Of a stretch of 25,146 nt of DNA, positions 648 to 15,342 are shown in pieces. How positions within the stretch are numbered: the stretch's first letter is position 1; every line of letters starts with the position of its first letter. The notes beneath the pieces are model-generated. The model was given only the letters and a program-made list of their open reading frames with translations. It was not told the DNA's origin and made no database searches. The stretch lies in contig JAGCLR010000407.1 in NCBI GenBank assembly GCA_017646885.1, positions 1 to 25,146 on the forward strand. The letters run 5' to 3'. This DNA comes from Methanobrevibacter sp. GTDB lineage: Archaea > Methanobacteriota > Methanobacteria > Methanobacteriales > Methanobacteriaceae. The translations under genes and the position numbers were made by a program.

Positions 648-706
648 CTCAATTTACCTCTCTTGTCTGTAATTTGTATATATCTTTCTCTCTTTCTTAT
701 ACATAT

Positions 707-735
707 ATTATATCAAAATTTTTTATAAAATTCAA
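707..735 (-). promoter_or_regulatory. Sigma-A promoter for the gene at 306-647
   Basis: Minus strand: -35 TTGAAT, 17-bp spacer, -10 TATAAT. It has a slightly weak -35 compared with the other promoters of the window. Confidence 0.65.
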
Positions 736-935
736 GTGGTTGCGGGCGCCAGGTCATTGTCACCTGGGACGGGTCCCGTCCCCAGAACAAAACAACTATG
801 AAGGGGATCCATATGGCAAGGGCCTCGGTATTCCGGGAAAATCCAGGTCGCCGGGCCAAGGTCCAAACAACTAGGAAAAATCGCCATATAGGCCCGTGGA
901 CCTGGAACCGGGCCGCAGCGTGCGTCCGCGGCCCG
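736..935 (-). ncRNA. GC-rich structured leader or small RNA with a 75-nt tandem repeat
   Basis: About 200 bases with no convincing ORF and far higher GC than the surroundings lie immediately downstream of a consensus minus-strand promoter (939-967). The 5' end of the predicted RNA folds as an 8-bp perfect stem (CGGGCCGC 909-916 with GCGGCCCG 928-935). Further in, two copies of a unit are seen 75 nt apart. On the plus strand each has AAACAACTA, exactly ten bases, then CCATAT (790-814 and 865-889), with GC-rich stems around them. One such stem is CGGGCC (852-857) with GGCCCG (890-895). It could be an independent RNA or a long structured 5' leader of the gene at 306-647. I do not recognise a known RNA family. 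Confidence 0.45.
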
Positions 936-938
936 CTC

Positions 939-967
939 ATTATACCATACCTCGCGCCTTATGTCAA
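939..967 (-). promoter_or_regulatory. Sigma-A promoter P2 of regulatory element 1
   Basis: Minus strand: perfect TTGACA, 17-bp spacer, perfect TATAAT. Transcription would begin at the GC-rich hairpin at 909-935. No facing plus-strand promoter is visible, so this is a half-copy of the convergent elements described at 5223-5346. Confidence 0.8.
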
Positions 968-1678: not shown

Positions 1679-2044
1679 CTACTCCGCAAGGGAGAAGTAG
1701 GATTTTTTCTTTTCAATGGTCTTTACGACCTTGCCTTCCTCTTTAAGGATGCGAAGCAGTGCAGAAAGTTTCTGATTGGAATGCACTCTCATTTCTTCGA
1801 ACAGCTCCCACATTTCAGTAATAGTTACTGGTTTTTCAACCTTGGCAAGACATTCCAGAATCTGAGCCATGATTTTTTCATTCTCAATCTGAGATTTTGT
1901 CTGCTTAGTTGTGGAAGATTTTCTTTCAAGCAATTCCACTTCATGGTCGATGAAAGCAAGCACTTCTTCTGTGCAATTTTCAGATGCTACTACGATACCT
2001 CTAACTACTGCGAACATTTCTTTCTTTGTCATTTTCTTTGTCAT
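1679..2044 (-). CDS. Winged-helix-like protein, paralog 1 of 3
   Basis: Paralogous to the genes at 4456-4824 and 7586-7945. All share an N-terminal TKKMTKKEMF helix, a HExELLERKSS segment, a KTKSQxENEKxMA helix, and a C-terminal half reading P-x-T-x-TE ... SNQKLSALLRILKEEGKV ... KKSYFSLAE. The C-terminal half has the size and pattern of a winged helix (recognition helix SNQKLSALLR followed by a beta wing), so a DNA-binding regulator is likely by inference. I start at the ATG encoding MTKKMTKK; GAGGG lies nine bases upstream. The promoter is at 2085-2113 with an A-tract upstream. Stop codons are tandem TAGTAG. The tRNA minihelix follows directly. Confidence 0.8.
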   Translation of the reverse strand: MTKKMTKKEMFAVVRGIVVASENCTEEVLAFIDHEVELLERKSSTTKQTKSQIENEKIMAQILECLAKVEKPVTITEMWELFEEMRVHSNQKLSALLRILKEEGKVVKTIEKKKSYFSLAE

Positions 2045-2084
2045 AATCAAATCCCTCTTTCTTTCTTTTGTTTTTTACATCTTT

Positions 2085-2267: not shown

Positions 2268-2388
2268 TAGACTTCCGCGGAAAAATGTGCTATACTGATC
2301 TGTTGTGCAAAAACGGCCTGGGTCGCTCAAGAGCGGGCCGCCAATTATAGCATACTTTTTTATCTCTTGTCAATAGGTAAAATGCACA
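2268..2388. promoter_or_regulatory. Convergent promoter-hairpin element 2
   Basis: Plus promoter: TAGACT, 17 bp, TATACT (2268-2296). Minus promoter: TTGACA, 18 bp, TATAAT (2344-2373), with a TGTGCA box nine bp upstream of its -35 (2383-2388). Between the two -10 boxes lies a GC-rich segment with CGGCC/GGCCG arms and an inner GCTC-AA-GAGC hairpin. The two promoters face each other across the hairpin. Confidence 0.65.
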
Positions 2389-3442: not shown

Positions 3443-3515
3443 TTGACAGGATCTCGGCCCGCGCCGTGCGCAAATGGGCCGCTCAATTATACCACATTTC
3501 ATGTGGTTTTGTCAA
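3443..3515. promoter_or_regulatory. Convergent element 3 (one arm degenerate)
   Basis: The minus promoter is TTGACA, 18 bp, TATAAT (3486-3515). On the plus strand a perfect TTGACA (3443-3448) is present but no -10 follows. Between them lies a GC-rich hairpin with arms CGGCCC and GGGCCG. This looks like a dyad element that lost the plus -10. Confidence 0.55.
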
Positions 3516-4455: not shown

Positions 4456-4824
4456 CTACTCCGCAAGGAAGAAATAAGATTTCTTCTTGTCGATAGTCTT
4501 TTCTACTTTACCTTCTTCTTTCAGAAGTCTAAGCAGAGCGGAAAGTTTCTGGTTGGAAAGACCAGTCAGGCTTTCAGTTTTCATCAGTTCAGTAACAGTT
4601 GTCGGACTGTTAATCTTTGCGAGTTCCTCAAGGATGAGAGCCATGATTTTCTCATTCTCAACCTGAGATTTAGTTTTTGCGGAAGAAGATTTCTTTCTTT
4701 CCAGCAGTTCAATTTCGTGAGCAAGGAAGTCCATCATTTCAGCTTTATTAGCTGTTTCAGCAACTTCTACAACTTCCATAACCATAGTGAACATTTCTTT
4801 TTTAGTCATTTTTTTGTTTGTCAT
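4456..4824 (-). CDS. Winged-helix-like protein, paralog 2 of 3
   Basis: 122 residues, paralogous to the products of 1679-2044 and 7586-7945 over the whole length. Most conserved are HEIELLERKKS, KTKSQVENEKIMA, LSNQKLSALLRLLKEEGKV and KKKSYFFLAE. The N-terminal helix differs most (VVEVAETANKAEMMDF). I start at the ATG encoding MTNKKMTKK, nine bases after GAGGG. Three promoters stand in a row upstream (4877-4905, 4978-5006, and 5099-5127 with a poor -35), more than any other gene here, which suggests high or complex expression. DNA binding is inferred from the fold pattern. Confidence 0.8.
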   Translation of the reverse strand: MTNKKMTKKEMFTMVMEVVEVAETANKAEMMDFLAHEIELLERKKSSSAKTKSQVENEKIMALILEELAKINSPTTVTELMKTESLTGLSNQKLSALLRLLKEEGKVEKTIDKKKSYFFLAE

Positions 4825-4876
4825 AATTAAATCCCTCATTCTTTCTTGTGATTTTTTATTTGTTCTTTGTGCTTTT

Positions 4877-5006: not shown

Positions 5007-5222
5007 GGGGCTTTTTAACTTTTTTTCAAGTTTTTTCTTGAAGGAGAAGCACCTGCCGCTTAGGGAGTTTACTAACCTTGTTCCCCTTGACACTTATGAT
5101 TATATCACATTCTACGCAGAATACAATAGACAGAATACACAAAGATGCGGTGGATCCTTTGTGCAATGTGCCAGGTCCTTGGTAGATCTGCCCAAATTCC
5201 GGGAGTTTTTAGTGTTGAAGTT
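5007..5222. other. Gene-free stretch: weak promoter and leader remnants
   Basis: I find no supportable gene. On the minus strand there is a -10 TATAAT (5099-5104) with only a poor -35 (ATTGTA or TTGTAT), then a leader starting with AGTGTCAAGGGGAA. This resembles the leader start AGTGTCAAGAGGGA near 9176. The part at 5145-5220 carries TAGATCTGCC, a motif shared with elements 2 and 6 in part. Confidence 0.45.
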
Positions 5223-5346
5223 TGTGCAACTTGCCCATTGACAAAATTGCTGAGCCATGGTATAATAGAAATTTCGGCGAGTGAGGAGCGCTCGCCGGGC
5301 GATCATATCACATCTGGGGCATTATGTCAATAGATAATTATGCACA
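5223..5346. promoter_or_regulatory. Convergent promoter-hairpin element 4 (best copy, 124-bp dyad)
   Basis: In order on the plus strand: TGTGCA (5223-5228); nine bp; TTGACA (5238-5243); 17 bp; TATAAT (5261-5266); stem GGCGAG (5276-5281); nine-base loop; CTCGCC (5291-5296). Then come the mirrored minus elements: -10 TATGAT (5302-5307), 17 bp, -35 TTGACA (5325-5330), ten bp, TGTGCA (5341-5346). Every paired part is centred within about two bases of 5284-5286. Two near-perfect promoters therefore fire at each other, and both transcripts would begin with the same hairpin. Confidence 0.8.
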
Positions 5347-5381
5347 AAAATAAGTGGAAATTTTGTTTAAAATTTCCACTT
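5347..5381 (-). terminator. Intrinsic terminator of the gene at 5388-5573
   Basis: Perfect 13-bp stem, AAGTGGAAATTTT (5352-5364) with AAAATTTCCACTT (5369-5381), followed by AUUUUUG on the minus strand. Confidence 0.85.
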
Positions 5382-5387
5382 GACAAA

Positions 5388-5573
5388 TTATAAAATATTT
5401 TCTTTTTTAATTCTTTCCGCGACCACTTCAACCCCGAGGACTCTAATCGCTCTATCCAGTGCATCAGAAAATTCTTTCATTCTCATTCTTTTTACTAACT
5501 TTACACATTCGTCATACTCTTCTTTTGATAATTCGTAAGGAACGCACTCACGCTCTGCTAATTTATACTGCAT
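5388..5573 (-). CDS. Unknown small basic protein
   Basis: Not recognised. The 61-residue product is helical (SKEEYDECVKLVKRMRMKEF, then SDALDRAIRVLGVEVVAERI) and net basic. The second helix pair has the spacing of a small helix-turn-helix, but nothing decides this. ATG is preceded by AGAGAGGAAAAATAA, and the promoter is TTGACA, 17 bp, TATAAT at 5602-5630. It has its own terminator, so it is a one-gene unit. Confidence 0.7.
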   Translation of the reverse strand: MQYKLAERECVPYELSKEEYDECVKLVKRMRMKEFSDALDRAIRVLGVEVVAERIKKENIL

Positions 5574-7401: not shown

Positions 7402-7537
7402 TTGTCTATTTTAACTATTGACAACAGATCAAAAATGTGGTATACTATAATGTTACGCGGATTCGGCGCGTGAGGAACGAAAGCGCGCCGCCATTTTATC
7501 ACATTTTTATGCGAATGTCAATACAAAAAAATGCACA
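7402..7537. promoter_or_regulatory. Convergent promoter-hairpin element 5
   Basis: Plus promoter: TTGACA, 17 bp, TATACT (7418-7446). Minus promoter: TTGACA, 17 bp, TAAAAT (7493-7521), with a TGTGCA box ten bp upstream (7532-7537). Between them is the hairpin GGCGCG (7465-7470) / CGCGCC (7484-7489), whose loop starts TGAGGAACG, like the loop TGAGGAGCG of element 4. The two promoters are centred on 7469-7470. Confidence 0.8.
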
Positions 7538-7566
7538 AAAAAACAGACCGCATTTTGTGCGGTCTG
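7538..7566 (-). terminator. Intrinsic terminator of winged-helix paralog 3
   Basis: Perfect 9-bp stem CAGACCGCA/TGCGGTCTG, followed by seven U on the minus strand. Confidence 0.9.
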
Positions 7567-7585: not shown

Positions 7586-7945
7586 TCATTCTGCCAGAGA
7601 GAAGTAAGATTTTTTCTTCTCAATGGTTTTTACAACCTCGCCACGCTCTTTCATAATTCTAAGCAGTGCAGAGATTTTCTGATTGCTTAATTCTACGAGT
7701 GGCATCAGCTCGGTTACAGTGGCAGGCTTGCCAATTTCCGCGAGTGCTTCTTTCAGCTTAGCCATCAGCTTTTCATTTTCAAGCTGTGTCTTTGTTGTTG
7801 CGCTCTTGGAAGATTTTCTTTCGAGCAGTTCCACTTCGTGAGCCAGGAAGCCAAGCATTTCTTCTTTGTTTTCAACTTCTACACTTTCAACAACCTCGAT
7901 TACCATTGCGAACATTTCTTTTTTTGTCATTTTCTTTTCCATCAT
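7586..7945 (-). CDS. Winged-helix-like protein, paralog 3 of 3
   Basis: 119 residues, similar end to end to the products of 1679-2044 and 4456-4824: KKMTKKEMFAMV, HEVELLERKSSKS, KTQLENEKLMAKL, LSNQKISALLRIMKERGEV, KKKSYFSLAE. Differences concentrate between residues 15 and 35 and just before the putative recognition helix, where target specificity would be expected to differ. I start at the ATG eight bases after GAGG; an earlier ATG two bases after the site is unlikely. Promoter with A-rich upstream DNA at 7996-8024, and a clean terminator downstream. DNA binding is inference. Confidence 0.8.
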   Translation of the reverse strand: MMEKKMTKKEMFAMVIEVVESVEVENKEEMLGFLAHEVELLERKSSKSATTKTQLENEKLMAKLKEALAEIGKPATVTELMPLVELSNQKISALLRIMKERGEVVKTIEKKKSYFSLAE

Positions 7946-7995
7946 AGTCATTACCTCTTTCTTTCTTTTGATTTGTTATTTGTTTTTGTAACTTT

Positions 7996-8835: not shown

Positions 8836-8902
8836 TTAATAGTTGGGAGTCGAACCCAATCTTTGGCGGAAGCCATGTGCTAAACCATTACACTACTATT
8901 AA
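8836..8902 (-). tRNA. tRNA-Gly(UCC)-like gene with a collapsed anticodon arm
   Basis: Minus strand. The acceptor stem is a perfect 7 bp (TTAATAG/CTATTAA), the D arm is GTGT-AATGGTTTA-GCAC with the conserved GG, and the T arm is TTGGG-TTCGACT-CCCAA. Between D and T arms only 17 bases remain where a tRNA needs about 23. They contain CTTCCGC, which reads as an anticodon loop with UCC, but the best pairing is TGGC-TTCC-GCCA, a 4-bp stem with a 4-nt loop. No CCA is encoded. All outer helices are intact, so only the anticodon region has shrunk. It may be a decaying tRNA or a tRNA mimic; normal decoding looks impossible. Confidence 0.55.
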
Positions 8903-8911
8903 ATTGCGAGA

Positions 8912-9060
8912 GCGTGCTACCACTTACACCAAGGAATCGAACCTCTCTCAGGGCACCAAGCCGAGTCGAACGGGACCTCTCTCTATTTGGTAGGTTGCCA
9001 ATGCCTAGCTACTTGCCTAGGATGTTCGCTAGATTATTTGGCTTCTTGGGGGACCTTACC
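8912..9060 (-). pseudogene. Cluster of tRNA fragments
   Basis: Minus-strand pieces of at least three tRNAs lie head to tail. One is a D arm (GTGT-AAGTGGTA-GCAC, 8912-8930) followed by CTCTCGC, which looks like an anticodon loop but has no stem. Another is a T-loop motif GGTTCGATTCC (8933-8943). A third is CCG-TTCGACT-CGG (8961-8973), which with GGCAACC (near 8999) and GGTGCC (near 8952) makes an imperfect minihelix like that at 1631-1672. The T-loop parts share flanks (CACCAAG and CTCTCTC on the plus strand), so they look like diverged tandem copies. A consensus promoter at 9076-9104 would transcribe the whole array. Confidence 0.5.
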
Positions 9061-9226: not shown

Positions 9227-9243
9227 AATTTCGGGATAGATCT

Positions 9244-9352
9244 TTGTGCAACTTTTCACCATTTTTCGCTTGACAAATTGCTGGGGCTATAGTATAATAG
9301 AATTTCGGCGCGAGAGGGTCGTTCGCGCCGCGCTGAAACAATCATTTGTCAA
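9244..9352. promoter_or_regulatory. Convergent element 6 (minus -10 lost)
   Basis: The plus promoter is perfect: TTGACA (9270-9275), 17 bp, TATAAT (9293-9298), with TGTGCA further upstream (9245-9250). The hairpin GGCGCG/CGCGCC follows (9306-9328). On the minus strand TTGACA (9347-9352) is present, but GC bases occupy the -10 position. Only the rightward promoter should work. Confidence 0.7.
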
Positions 9353-11311: not shown

Positions 11312-11669
11312 TAGTATTTAGTAAAGTTTTTATTGTTATTTATTTAACAACTATTGTGCTGTGTTAGTGTATGTATGTGTATACACATACGCTGTGGTGT
11401 GCTGTCCGACCTCTTGCCCCTTGCCCTGGTTAGGGTAGTAGCTAGCTACCTATTAAGCACGCTTTTGTTGTTAATTTTTTAACAAATTAATTCCCTTATT
11501 TACCTAACTACCCTACTAAGGATCGGGTGTTAAAAAATTAACAATCTCGCTACTGTGCATCGCTAAAGTGGTTTACTATTTACTAAGTTTGGCAAACTAC
11601 TCAATTAAGAACGCCCGCATTGTGGGATGTCGCCCTTGTGCATTATACACAAACATCTGCGAAAAAAAT

Positions 11670-11768
11670 TGTGCAATATACCTATTGACAGGCGACTCGG
11701 CTCGCAAGGACCGCTCGCCGGCCAAGCATTAAGCTGTTGTATCTAATGTAATAAGTATGTATTGCACA
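11670..11768. promoter_or_regulatory. Element 7, degenerate copy of the convergent element
   Basis: Plus strand: TGTGCA (11670-11675), nine bp, TTGACA (11685-11690), then directly a GC-rich segment with GGCGA/TCGCC arms. On the right a mirrored TGCACA (11763-11768) stands where the minus box would be, but no minus -35 or -10 remains. The start TTGACAGG is shared with element 3. Confidence 0.5.
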
Positions 11769-14172: not shown

Positions 14173-15342
14173 ATGATAGACACAGAAAATAAAAATTTGG
14201 ACTTTGAGGATGATGAGTTAGAGGATACCGATCAATCCCTTCAAGAGTCAATAGAAGATAATCTCGCGGAAGAAGGTATTAAACCTGTTGTTAGATTGGA
14301 TTATACTTTACAAACTCCTCAGGAAAGAAATGAATTAGTTAAACAAATTATCGATAGCACGCCTCCTGAAAAACTTACCAATAGATATTTAGAAATTTTA
14401 ACAGATTATATTATATTTGCAATGGATAAAGAAGAGCGAAAAGAAAAGAAAATTTTAACAGATAATAGAATGGTAACAGTAAATAAACGAGAAACTTCCT
14501 ATCAAGGACTAATTAGTAAGTTTGAAAATGGGGAAGATGGAATTTATAATATGATTGCGAATGACAAGAATATTATATTTACACCTAAGGTATCAATCAC
14601 CCCGCAAGATTTGGAGGAAATTCCCGCGCTAAGAGACTTAAAAGAAGCGATCGCGCAAGTAGAGGCGCAAGTTGGACGAGCAAGCGGAAAGAAAAAATAT
14701 TTATTAAAAAAACAATTAATTGAAATGCGACAAGATCAATATGTAATTAAAAATGCGTATCACCCGCCCATGTATTGTGTTAATGCGGTTAAAAGTTTTA
14801 GCACCATGGATTTTTCAGAGTCTGTTGTTATTACTGAAGAAGGAGAAGTAAAAAGTAACGCGGTAATTACATTATTTGATTCTAAACATGTTTCTGCGCT
14901 ATTGTGTAATTATTCAAGATTAAAAGAAGATGCTTATGGTAAATTTTATAGCGATTCTTATTTTTTAATGGAGGATTTAGATAGTTTAGTAGAACGAACT
15001 TTAAAAGAAAAATACCCCTTATATTACGATCTTTTAATTTATAAAATTGATGGCAAACAAAATATTGAAATTCAAAAACTTTTATTGGATGATCATGGAA
15101 TTAAACATTCAGTAGAGTATATTTCCTCGTTGTGGAGGAATAAAATTCCGAAACTGCTTGCGGAGCAAGCACAAGAGGAATATTTACTCTGGTATTTTAC
15201 AATGAAAGAAAAAGGCAAATGGAAAAAATGCTCTCGTTGTGGTGAAGTTAAATTAGCTCATAATCGCTTTTTTTCAAAGAATAAAACAAGCCGTGATGGT
15301 TTTTATAGTATTTGCAAGGCTTGTAGAAATAAAAAGAAGTAA
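14173..15342 (+). CDS. Zinc-ribbon protein at the head of the packaging operon
   Basis: 389 residues. The N-terminus is acidic (residues 1-35); the middle is mixed helix and strand without a motif I know. Around residues 300-330, IQKLLLDDHGIKHSVEYISSL looks like a helix-turn-helix. The C-terminus has CSRCG (C353, C356) and CKAC (C381, C384), a four-cysteine zinc ribbon ending in Lys. DNA binding is therefore likely. Its place, two genes before the large terminase, suggests a role in packaging initiation (small-terminase-like) or late transcription; neither is proven. RBS AAAGGAGAG before ATG. Confidence 0.65.
   Translation: MIDTENKNLDFEDDELEDTDQSLQESIEDNLAEEGIKPVVRLDYTLQTPQERNELVKQIIDSTPPEKLTNRYLEILTDYIIFAMDKEERKEKKILTDNRMVTVNKRETSYQGLISKFENGEDGIYNMIANDKNIIFTPKVSITPQDLEEIPALRDLKEAIAQVEAQVGRASGKKKYLLKKQLIEMRQDQYVIKNAYHPPMYCVNAVKSFSTMDFSESVVITEEGEVKSNAVITLFDSKHVSALLCNYSRLKEDAYGKFYSDSYFLMEDLDSLVERTLKEKYPLYYDLLIYKIDGKQNIEIQKLLLDDHGIKHSVEYISSLWRNKIPKLLAEQAQEEYLLWYFTMKEKGKWKKCSRCGEVKLAHNRFFSKNKTSRDGFYSICKACRNKKK

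What the first reader, a model, noticed from the sequence alone, without database searches (positions are those of the whole stretch)
5223..5346. A dyad regulatory element: two near-perfect promoters firing at each other across a GC hairpin
TGTGCA box, -35, -10, GGCGAG stem, CTCGCC stem, -10, -35 and TGTGCA box are arranged in mirror order, all centred within about two bases of position 5284-5286. Related copies, whole or partial, occur at about 909-967, 2268-2388, 3443-3515, 7402-7537, 9244-9352 and 11670-11768, each between blocks of minus-strand genes. The stem sequence changes from copy to copy (GGCGAG, GGCGCG, CGGGCCGC, CGGCCC) while pairing is kept, which argues for selection on the hairpin. 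Both transcripts would start at the hairpin, giving a 5' stem-loop and antisense overlap of about 25 bases. Face-to-face promoters of this strength would normally interfere with each other. Possible roles: transcription-collision switch, paired small RNAs, 5'-stabilised leaders, or replication/packaging site. I know no described family like this.
Basis: seen in the sequence. Interest (0 to 1): 0.9.

Follow-up and report, generated by a model that had tools for sequence, protein, structure and literature searches.

The report
Antisense phage promoters with start-site hairpins
Large gut phages carry, behind many of their early genes, a strong backward-pointing promoter whose transcript would begin with a short GC-rich hairpin; the hairpin's letters differ almost everywhere but its pairing is kept, which points to a repeated way of controlling gene ends.

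Summary
The element at 5223-5346 is real and mirrored as described. In related phage DNA it is one version of a wider family. The recurring core is a near-consensus promoter (PA) pointing back at the end of the preceding early gene, with a GC hairpin about where transcription should start. Of 107 promoters chosen only by upstream motifs, 94 have a perfect stem there, against 7.75 in shuffles; a pattern without the hairpin gave 48 of 50. Only 3 of 1066 promoters within 70 nt of a start codon have one. Stems are hypervariable (88 distinct arms of 94) but stay paired, with compensatory changes between orthologous loci. Some copies add, or keep instead, a promoter (PB) on the other strand sharing the hairpin. 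Mirrored motif pairs have the hairpin in 32 of 37 cases with a promoter and 1 of 22 without, so it goes with transcription. Best reading: a 5'-end RNA hairpin on untranslated antisense or long-leader transcripts, PA damping or insulating the gene in front. Transcription is inferred, not shown. The face-to-face pair is a minority form.

The parts
5193..5206 (+). CAAATTCCGGGAGT, copy of the class A upstream motif (consensus ACAAATTTcGGGA) between PA and the divergent sense promoter
5221..5228 (+). TTTGTGCA box upstream of the + (antisense) promoter PA
   Evidence: TGTGCA lies at exactly -15 from TTGACA in 70 of 149 class A promoters
5238..5266 (+). PA: TTGACA-N17-TATAAT with TG before the -10, pointing at the 3' end of the minus gene 5388-5573
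5275..5297 (.). GC hairpin CGGCGAG-9-CTCGCCG, 8 nt after the PA -10 and 4 nt after the PB -10
   Evidence: folded
5302..5330 (-). PB: TTGACA-N17-TATGAT, convergent with PA, sharing the hairpin
5341..5348 (-). TTTGTGCA box upstream of PB
5352..5381 (-). intrinsic terminator-like hairpin of the minus gene 5388-5573, directly in the path of PA
5099..5143 (-). divergent sense promoter P2 with its own TTTGTGTA box (TTGTAT-N16-TATAAT)
7418..7539 (.). second complete copy: PA 7418-7446 (+), hairpin 7464-7490, PB 7521-7493 (-), right-hand box 7532-7539
9243..9352 (.). PA-only copy: box 9243-9250, PA 9270-9298, hairpin 9306-9330; opposite TTGACA 9352-9347 has no -10
3443..3515 (.). PB-only copy: orphan + TTGACA 3443-3448, hairpin 3455-3481, PB 3515-3486 (-)
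2268..2388 (.). PB copy with weak + promoter; interrupted hairpin followed on the minus strand by TTTTT
909..967 (-). PB-only copy: PB 967-939, hairpin CGGGCCGC-11-GCGGCCCG 935-909; start of a candidate non-coding RNA region
11669..11768 (.). decayed copy: mirrored boxes and one TTGACA, no -10 on either side, imperfect stem

Best explanation
The element is a member of a family of early-region promoter cassettes in large phages of gut and rumen bacteria, apparently Clostridia. In the direction of the early genes the layout is: terminator of gene 1; optional sense promoter PB; GC hairpin; antisense promoter PA; a CCCGAA/TTTGTGCA motif block; sense promoter P2; gene 2. PA starts just behind gene 1's terminator and fires back into gene 1. 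PB, where present, fires toward gene 2 from far upstream of its start codon. A palindrome reads as a hairpin on both strands, so one hairpin serves both. Proposed mechanism: the hairpin works in the RNA, at its extreme 5' end, on transcripts with no ribosome near their start (antisense PA RNA, long PB leaders). It shields them from 5'-end-dependent decay (RNase J in Firmicutes; RppH as recalled). PA then lowers or insulates expression of gene 1 by polymerase collision plus stable antisense RNA. Shown by sequence: anatomy, conservation, paired stems, coupling of hairpin to promoter, its absence at start-codon promoters. Inferred: that the promoters fire, that the hairpin acts as RNA, that stability is the benefit, that gene 1 is the target.
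For: Selection by upstream motifs alone: 94 of 107 have a perfect stem of at least 6 bp; 20 shuffles give a mean of 7.75, maximum 11; start 6-9 nt after the -10 in 77 of the 94. Selection by core promoter and leader only: 48 of 50 distinct matches with hairpin, 49 of 50 with a GGGA motif, 47 of 50 with a box-like motif. Context of 2633 strict promoters: start codon within 70 nt 3 of 1066; facing a gene 3' end within 150 nt and with box 83 of 103; distal sense with box 36 of 119. Mirrored boxes: both promoters 12 of 12 with hairpin, one promoter 20 of 25, none 1 of 22. Compensatory changes at orthologous loci. Among 183 class A elements the best stem downstream on the PA strand carries the A-tract of a terminator facing PA in 108, median 16 nt from the hairpin. 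Literature: RNase J1's 5' exonuclease explains why 5' roadblocks stabilise long untranslated RNA (passages of PMC3997798); terminator plus antisense promoter represses by collision and antisense RNA about equally (passages and Discussion of PMC4731013).
Against: No transcription data. PB hairpins start 2-5 nt after the -10 in 20 of 20, so a normal start site would fall inside the 5' arm and shorten the stem. The G.T versus A.C mismatch test gave no strand preference (8 versus 7; terminators 122 versus 94). PA RNA has no regular terminator: one within 900 nt in 46 of 183 against 21% of 600 random places; within 150 nt 17 of 183 against 3.7%, so its length is unknown. Distal sense promoters without the box mostly lack the hairpin (23 of 509 have it), and so do antisense ones without the box (50 of 236 have it), so lack of a nearby ribosome alone does not predict it. 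Only 2 of 8 folded window transcripts have z below -2 against their shuffles. Palindromes can also be kept perfect by template switching during replication (recalled), which mimics covariation.
Confidence: 0.5

Rival explanations
1. Collision or roadblock insulator: PA is there to stop readthrough from gene 1. Its RNA has no role; the hairpin keeps the freshly started antisense polymerase from backtracking as it meets the terminator.
For: Hairpin-to-stem distance has a median of 16 nt, so the hairpin would fold behind the polymerase about where sense transcription ends; in a synthetic system a model fitted to data gave antisense-fired polymerases lower collision survival (about 50% against 85%; PMC4731013).
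Against: Copies without a PA -10 keep a perfect hairpin. The backtracking step is speculation.
Confidence: 0.2
2. Convergent switch: PA and PB exclude each other and set a choice.
For: Expected start sites about 22 bp apart imply overlapping polymerase footprints; both promoters occur at 5285 and 7480 and in relatives such as L067 and L042.
Against: Only 12 of 37 promoter-bearing mirrored pairs have both promoters; 20 of the 25 single-promoter ones still have the hairpin.
Confidence: 0.1
3. Sense-direction terminator or attenuator: the hairpin ends RNA made by PB or by readthrough.
For: Of 15 hairpins my script counted as PB-only (a few of these still show a PA -10), 7 have a run of at least 4 T within 12 nt after the stem, as does the window copy at 2330.
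Against: Copies with PA have AAATTTCC there, a poor U-tract; a terminator does not explain the fixed spacing to the -10 or the near absence of the hairpin where no promoter remains.
Confidence: 0.1
4. DNA-level hairpin (cruciform, recombination or replication site), or a PeSL-like mobile cassette in which the repeats serve shuffling.
For: Near-perfect palindromes (30 mismatches in 1686 pairs of 188 class A-like stems) with no wobble bias; many small genes separated by similar cassettes.
Against: Mirrored boxes without promoters have a hairpin in 1 of 22; tight spacing to the -10; stems almost all different, so they offer little homology.
Confidence: 0.1

Closest known systems
Lambda OOP antisense RNA (pO-oop-tO)
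   Same: Phage antisense promoter whose RNA overlaps the 3' end of the gene it faces (52 bases over cII; passages of PMC5869508)
   Different: OOP is one gene with its own terminator; here the arrangement recurs at many early genes, has no regular terminator and carries a hypervariable hairpin at the start site
Synthetic terminator plus antisense promoter pairs (Brophy and Voigt 2016)
   Same: One-way terminator followed by an antisense promoter at a gene's 3' end; represses by collision and antisense RNA (passages and Discussion of PMC4731013)
   Different: Engineered in E. coli; no start-site hairpin in the passages seen; the Discussion cites a lack of conservation of natural antisense promoters, whereas this layout recurs widely
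PeSL cassettes of T4-type phages (recalled; only a search listing that counts the term was seen)
   Same: Strong sigma70-like promoter plus stem-loop in a region of small accessory genes
   Different: As recalled, the PeSL stem-loop is a terminator; here the hairpin abuts the start site of an antisense promoter and a separate terminator exists
5' stabilisers and roadblocks of Firmicutes mRNA
   Same: 5' structure would protect long untranslated RNA (passages of PMC3997798)
   Different: Known cases that I recall sit on mRNA leaders; here on antisense and distal promoters, as a sequence-free repeated family
SPBRE operators of the SP-beta master repressor MrpR
   Same: A short motif repeated at many promoters of a phage; the window's terminase has relatives annotated YonF, an SP-beta-type name
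   Different: SPBRE is a 15-bp repressor site and no hairpin is mentioned in the passages seen; no Phage_integrase-family gene found in 12 records searched

Membership tests
Lambda OOP-type antisense RNA | Promoter antisense to a gene's 3' end | tested here: met
   Of 184 box-bearing promoters whose next gene is antisense, 135 have the hairpin; 83 of 103 when the gene end is within 150 nt. Gene calls are my own
Lambda OOP-type antisense RNA | Short RNA ended by its own intrinsic terminator | tested here: not met
   PA-direction terminator within 150 nt in 17 of 183 (random 3.7%) and within 900 nt in 46 of 183 (random 21%); terminators facing PA are not more bidirectional, 1 of 18 versus 19 of 154
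T4 PeSL cassette | Stem-loop acts as terminator of the upstream gene (definition recalled) | tested here: not met
   A separate stem with a terminator A-tract lies beyond the hairpin in 108 of 183, median distance of best stems 16 nt; class A hairpins are followed by AAATTTCC in the sense direction
T4 PeSL cassette | Mediates recombination between cassettes | not tested
   no recombination analysis done
N4 vRNAP hairpin promoter (definition recalled) | DNA hairpin upstream of the start site replaces -35/-10 recognition | tested here: not met
   Near-consensus TTGACA/TATAAT present and the hairpin lies downstream of the -10
5' stabiliser stem-loop | Hairpin at the RNA 5' end | tested here: inconclusive
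   Position relative to the -10 fits for PA (6-9 nt in 77 of 94) but falls 2-5 nt after it for PB (20 of 20); start sites not mapped
5' stabiliser stem-loop | Longer RNA half-life that depends on the stem | not testable with these tools
   needs an experiment
SPBRE/MrpR regulon | Tyrosine-recombinase-fold repressor encoded by the phage | tested here: inconclusive
   PF00589: 0 of 12 phage records, control positive in 14 of 14; records may be fragments, the window's own phage is not held whole, and MrpR itself is far from known recombinases in sequence
Described Rfam RNA family | Match above gathering score | tested here: not met
   0 matches in the window

The most novel reading that the evidence does not exclude
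A new class of phage regulatory unit: early transcription units are closed by a dedicated antisense promoter whose RNA begins with a sequence-free hairpin that acts as a 5' cap substitute. The stability of the antisense RNA, rather than its sequence, is then the conserved trait, and one palindrome can cap transcripts from both strands.
Probability: 0.3. Interest if true: 0.8.

Novelty: new variant of a known kind. Interest (0 to 1): 0.62.

Why it matters
Antisense promoters in bacteria are often regarded as weak, fast-changing and noisy. Here a near-consensus antisense promoter with a fixed start-site structure recurs in many large phages while its stem sequence turns over. That gives a clean natural test of what antisense transcription at gene ends is for, and of whether a 5' hairpin is enough to make untranslated RNA last. 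It also supplies natural terminator and antisense-promoter parts that could be tested in Gram-positive hosts, and a sequence-independent signature for finding regulated early genes in uncultured phages.

Tried and rejected
Strand test: comparing G.T with A.C mismatches in the stems did not tell RNA of one strand from DNA.

Small-RNA idea: a promoter-to-terminator unit for PA was tested and not supported as the rule.

Tyrosine-recombinase-fold master repressor as the box-binding protein: not found in 12 records. The protein that reads TTTGTGCA, if any, is unknown; the box also sits where an UP element would be (recalled).

Does every box-bearing start-codon promoter come with a hairpin upstream? 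No: 39 of 88 with the box against 163 of 1372 without.

Replication-origin idea: box counts by 10 kb in two phage records crowd upstream of the terminase; nothing else supports an origin.

Within-genome diversifying selection on stems: 0 identical arms in 231 within-locus pairs, but the between-locus rate (49 of 17347) predicts less than one, so this is not evidence.

Rfam, tRNA and annotated-phage DNA searches gave nothing for the window's element; an element of L203 has one 60-base match in an unannotated human faecal phage contig. Two controls: in the stretches fetched, Phass-1 (30 kb) and Enterococcus phage H1 (45 kb) have 1 of 17 and 1 of 55 strict promoters with a hairpin within 20 nt.

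A very permissive scan for convergent promoter pairs was not specific (1506 observed, 1081 in the control) and was replaced.

Full report
WHAT THE WINDOW IS. A 25,146-base piece, 34% GC, of a large tailed phage: terminase, portal and a phrog_4088 protein on the + strand at the right, and a block of small minus-strand genes on the left. The terminase search found 187 stretches of viral contigs and kept the best 80 loci. In annotated phages the closest hit is an unannotated human-faecal contig at 70%, then Enterococcus phage H1, Geobacillus virus E3 and the human-gut phage Phass-1 at 44-47% identity. The box-plus-promoter pattern was found in 18 stretches of genome contigs: 11 are MAGs labelled Clostridia, Oscillospiraceae, Ruminococcus or Acetatifactor; the other 7 are labelled Treponema (3), Acinetobacter (2), Gastranaerophilales and uncultured bacterium. 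A Clostridia host is therefore likely but inferred.

THE OBSERVATION. Everything described at 5223-5346 is there and centred as stated. The other six copies are a mixture: one more with both promoters (7480), one PA-only (9325), two PB-only (907, 3460), one with a weak + promoter and an interrupted stem (2330) and one decayed (11705); orphan TTGACA motifs without a -10 remain in the copies at 3460, 9325 and 11705. A strict promoter followed by a GC hairpin occurs 61 times (46 distinct) in the window plus 80 loci, against 1, 2 and 1 in three Markov shuffles.

ONE FAMILY, TWO PROMOTER CLASSES. A pattern for box plus promoter found 104 stretches of viral contigs. In the window and 204 loci (2.44 Mb, overlaps between loci not removed) 2415 distinct strict promoters were listed, 253 with a GC hairpin; 249 of these were sorted by distance from the -10. 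Class A (149, hairpin 6-10 nt away): ACAAATTTcGGGA, a variable stretch, aatTTTgTgcaAatTt, CTA, TTGACA, 17-18 nt ending TGTGG, TATAAT, GGAAATTTC, hairpin, CC, A-rich stretch. Class B (73, 5 nt or less): T-rich stretch, TTTTgTgcAatTT, CCTA, TTGACA, TGTGGTATAAT, GG, hairpin. Class A points mostly against genes, class B mostly with them. Among 2633 strict promoters in 225 sequences (each distinct sequence once, those within 60 nt of a locus end left out), hairpins occur at: start codon within 70 nt, 3 of 1066; antisense gene end within 150 nt, 83 of 103 with box; antisense farther off, 52 of 81 with box; antisense without box, 50 of 236; distal sense, 36 of 119 with box and 23 of 509 without; inside genes, 6 of 389; no gene downstream in the locus, 25 of 130. 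Gene calls were my own, by codon usage and ribosome-binding site, so single assignments can be wrong.

IS IT SELECTED? Three tests avoid choosing by the hairpin. First, promoters chosen by GGGA, TTGTG, TTGACA and a TATAAT-like hexamer only: 94 of 107 have a perfect stem of at least 6 bp, 20 shuffles give 7.75 on average (maximum 11), and 77 of the 94 start 6-9 nt after the -10; of the 13 misses several show imperfect stems. Second, a pattern of core promoter and leader only (its last two or three letters may touch the stem): 53 stretches in viral contigs; of 50 distinct matches in all 254 sequences held, 48 have the hairpin, 49 a GGGA motif and 47 a loosely defined box. Third, mirrored boxes only, with a lenient promoter definition: 12 of 12 with both promoters, 20 of 25 with one, 1 of 22 with none; some of the last group look like chance matches in coding sequence. 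Stem arms are almost all different (88 of 94). Between loci whose downstream DNA (60-760 nt beyond the -10) is 65-97% identical, stems change in step, for example L105/L164, L165/L173 and, in a copy lacking a PA -10, L190/L204. Over 50 such comparisons, 313 of 394 base pairs are the same, 72 changed on both sides, 7 go through G.T and 2 are broken, but many needed a register shift chosen for best identity; in the 23 that needed none, 178 of 204 are the same, 24 changed on both sides, 1 through G.T, 1 broken. These comparisons are not independent, some hairpins are counted from both strands, and rows had to pass a stem score, so broken stems are under-sampled.

WHAT IT LIKELY DOES. The hairpin is coupled to promoters by presence and by spacing, so it most likely acts in transcription. 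It is missing where a ribosome would sit near the 5' end and common on antisense and distant box-bearing promoters. In Bacillus subtilis the 5' exonuclease RNase J1 explains why 5' roadblocks stabilise long untranslated RNA (PMC3997798, passages). A gene, a one-way terminator and an antisense promoter is the layout that Brophy and Voigt built and found to repress by collision and antisense RNA in about equal parts (PMC4731013, passages and Discussion). Among 183 class A elements with hairpin, the best stem within 150 nt downstream has the A-tract of a terminator facing PA in 108, a T-tract in the PA direction in 23 (13 have both), and 17 have no stem; the median distance from the hairpin is 16 nt. 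I therefore read PA as an antisense promoter that damps or insulates the preceding early gene, with an RNA whose 5' end is protected by the hairpin; PB uses the same palindrome from the other side. Confidence 0.5 for this mechanism; the anatomy and its conservation are far more certain.

WEAK POINTS. No RNA evidence. The PB spacing (2-5 nt, 20 of 20) puts the expected start inside the stem. Length and end of PA RNA are unknown; terminators in its direction within 150 nt are slightly commoner than at random places (17 of 183 against 3.7% of 600), so a minority may be short RNAs. Mismatch types do not reveal the strand. Promoters without the box mostly lack the hairpin, whatever their direction, so the hairpin belongs to the box-bearing set rather than to untranslated RNA in general. 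Palindrome-correcting replication errors could raise the rate of paired changes, though not their restriction to promoters.

WIDER SPREAD. Relatives with other repeated motifs also have GC hairpins in gaps between genes, mostly but not always between minus-strand ones by crude gene calls: TTATGTAAAC in L003, L007, L009, L046 and L048, and TGTAAAGT-like motifs in L022, L025, L027 and L029. In L049 the order is TTTACA, 18 nt, TATTAT, GTAAACT, hairpin. Enterococcus phage H1 has one hairpin among AAAATAAC and GTTATTTT motifs. I did not measure these lineages systematically.

LITERATURE. Searches on early phage promoters with stem-loops and on antisense phage promoters and on collision termination showed no description of this family among the titles listed (10 of 10, 0, 8 of 1711, 10 of 20, 10 of 44 and 8 of 16 papers shown); subscription journals and preprints are largely missing from the library. 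The T4 PeSL, N4 and UP-element comparisons are recalled.

Noticed in passing
window about 700-935, minus strand; also L086, L097, L098, L101, L143, L181, L187: A conserved non-coding stretch with units like TATATGG...CTAGTTGTTTG, often repeated around TTCCCGAAA, found in 7 of the 8 other loci matching my pattern (the eighth, L010, looks coding); in most it follows a PB-type promoter and hairpin. A candidate structured RNA; no Rfam match above gathering score in the window copy.
   Followed up: partly
L003, L007, L009, L046, L048, L049: In a sister lineage the repeated motif beside the hairpin is TTATGTAAAC(T), which resembles, as I recall it, one half of the Bacillus dif/Xer site; no Phage_integrase-family gene was found in the two of these records searched, those of L003 and L049.
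   Followed up: partly
window 1679-2050, 4456-4839, 7586-7951 (minus): Three similar proteins of 121-127 aa (MTKKEMF near the start, KKSYF.LAE at the end) encoded in the early block; one weak PHROG match of unknown function for the one copy tested.
   Followed up: no
window about 1625-1670 and 8840-8960 (minus): Stretches that look like tRNA T-arms, which ARAGORN does not call as tRNAs.
   Followed up: no
L053 and L054 beside tRNA-like sequence; also L055 and window about 1600: GGAAAGGAGG recurs near such sequence, on the other strand an anti-Shine-Dalgarno-like CCTCCTTTCC.
   Followed up: no
L165:9149-9208 and L170:2776-2835: Mirrored box plus TTGACA-like dyads with no -10 and no hairpin, suggesting that box plus TTGACA may be a binding site in its own right.
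   Followed up: no
window 14173-15342 (+): Sigma-factor-like protein (phrog_5767) just upstream of the late genes, a candidate regulator.
   Followed up: no
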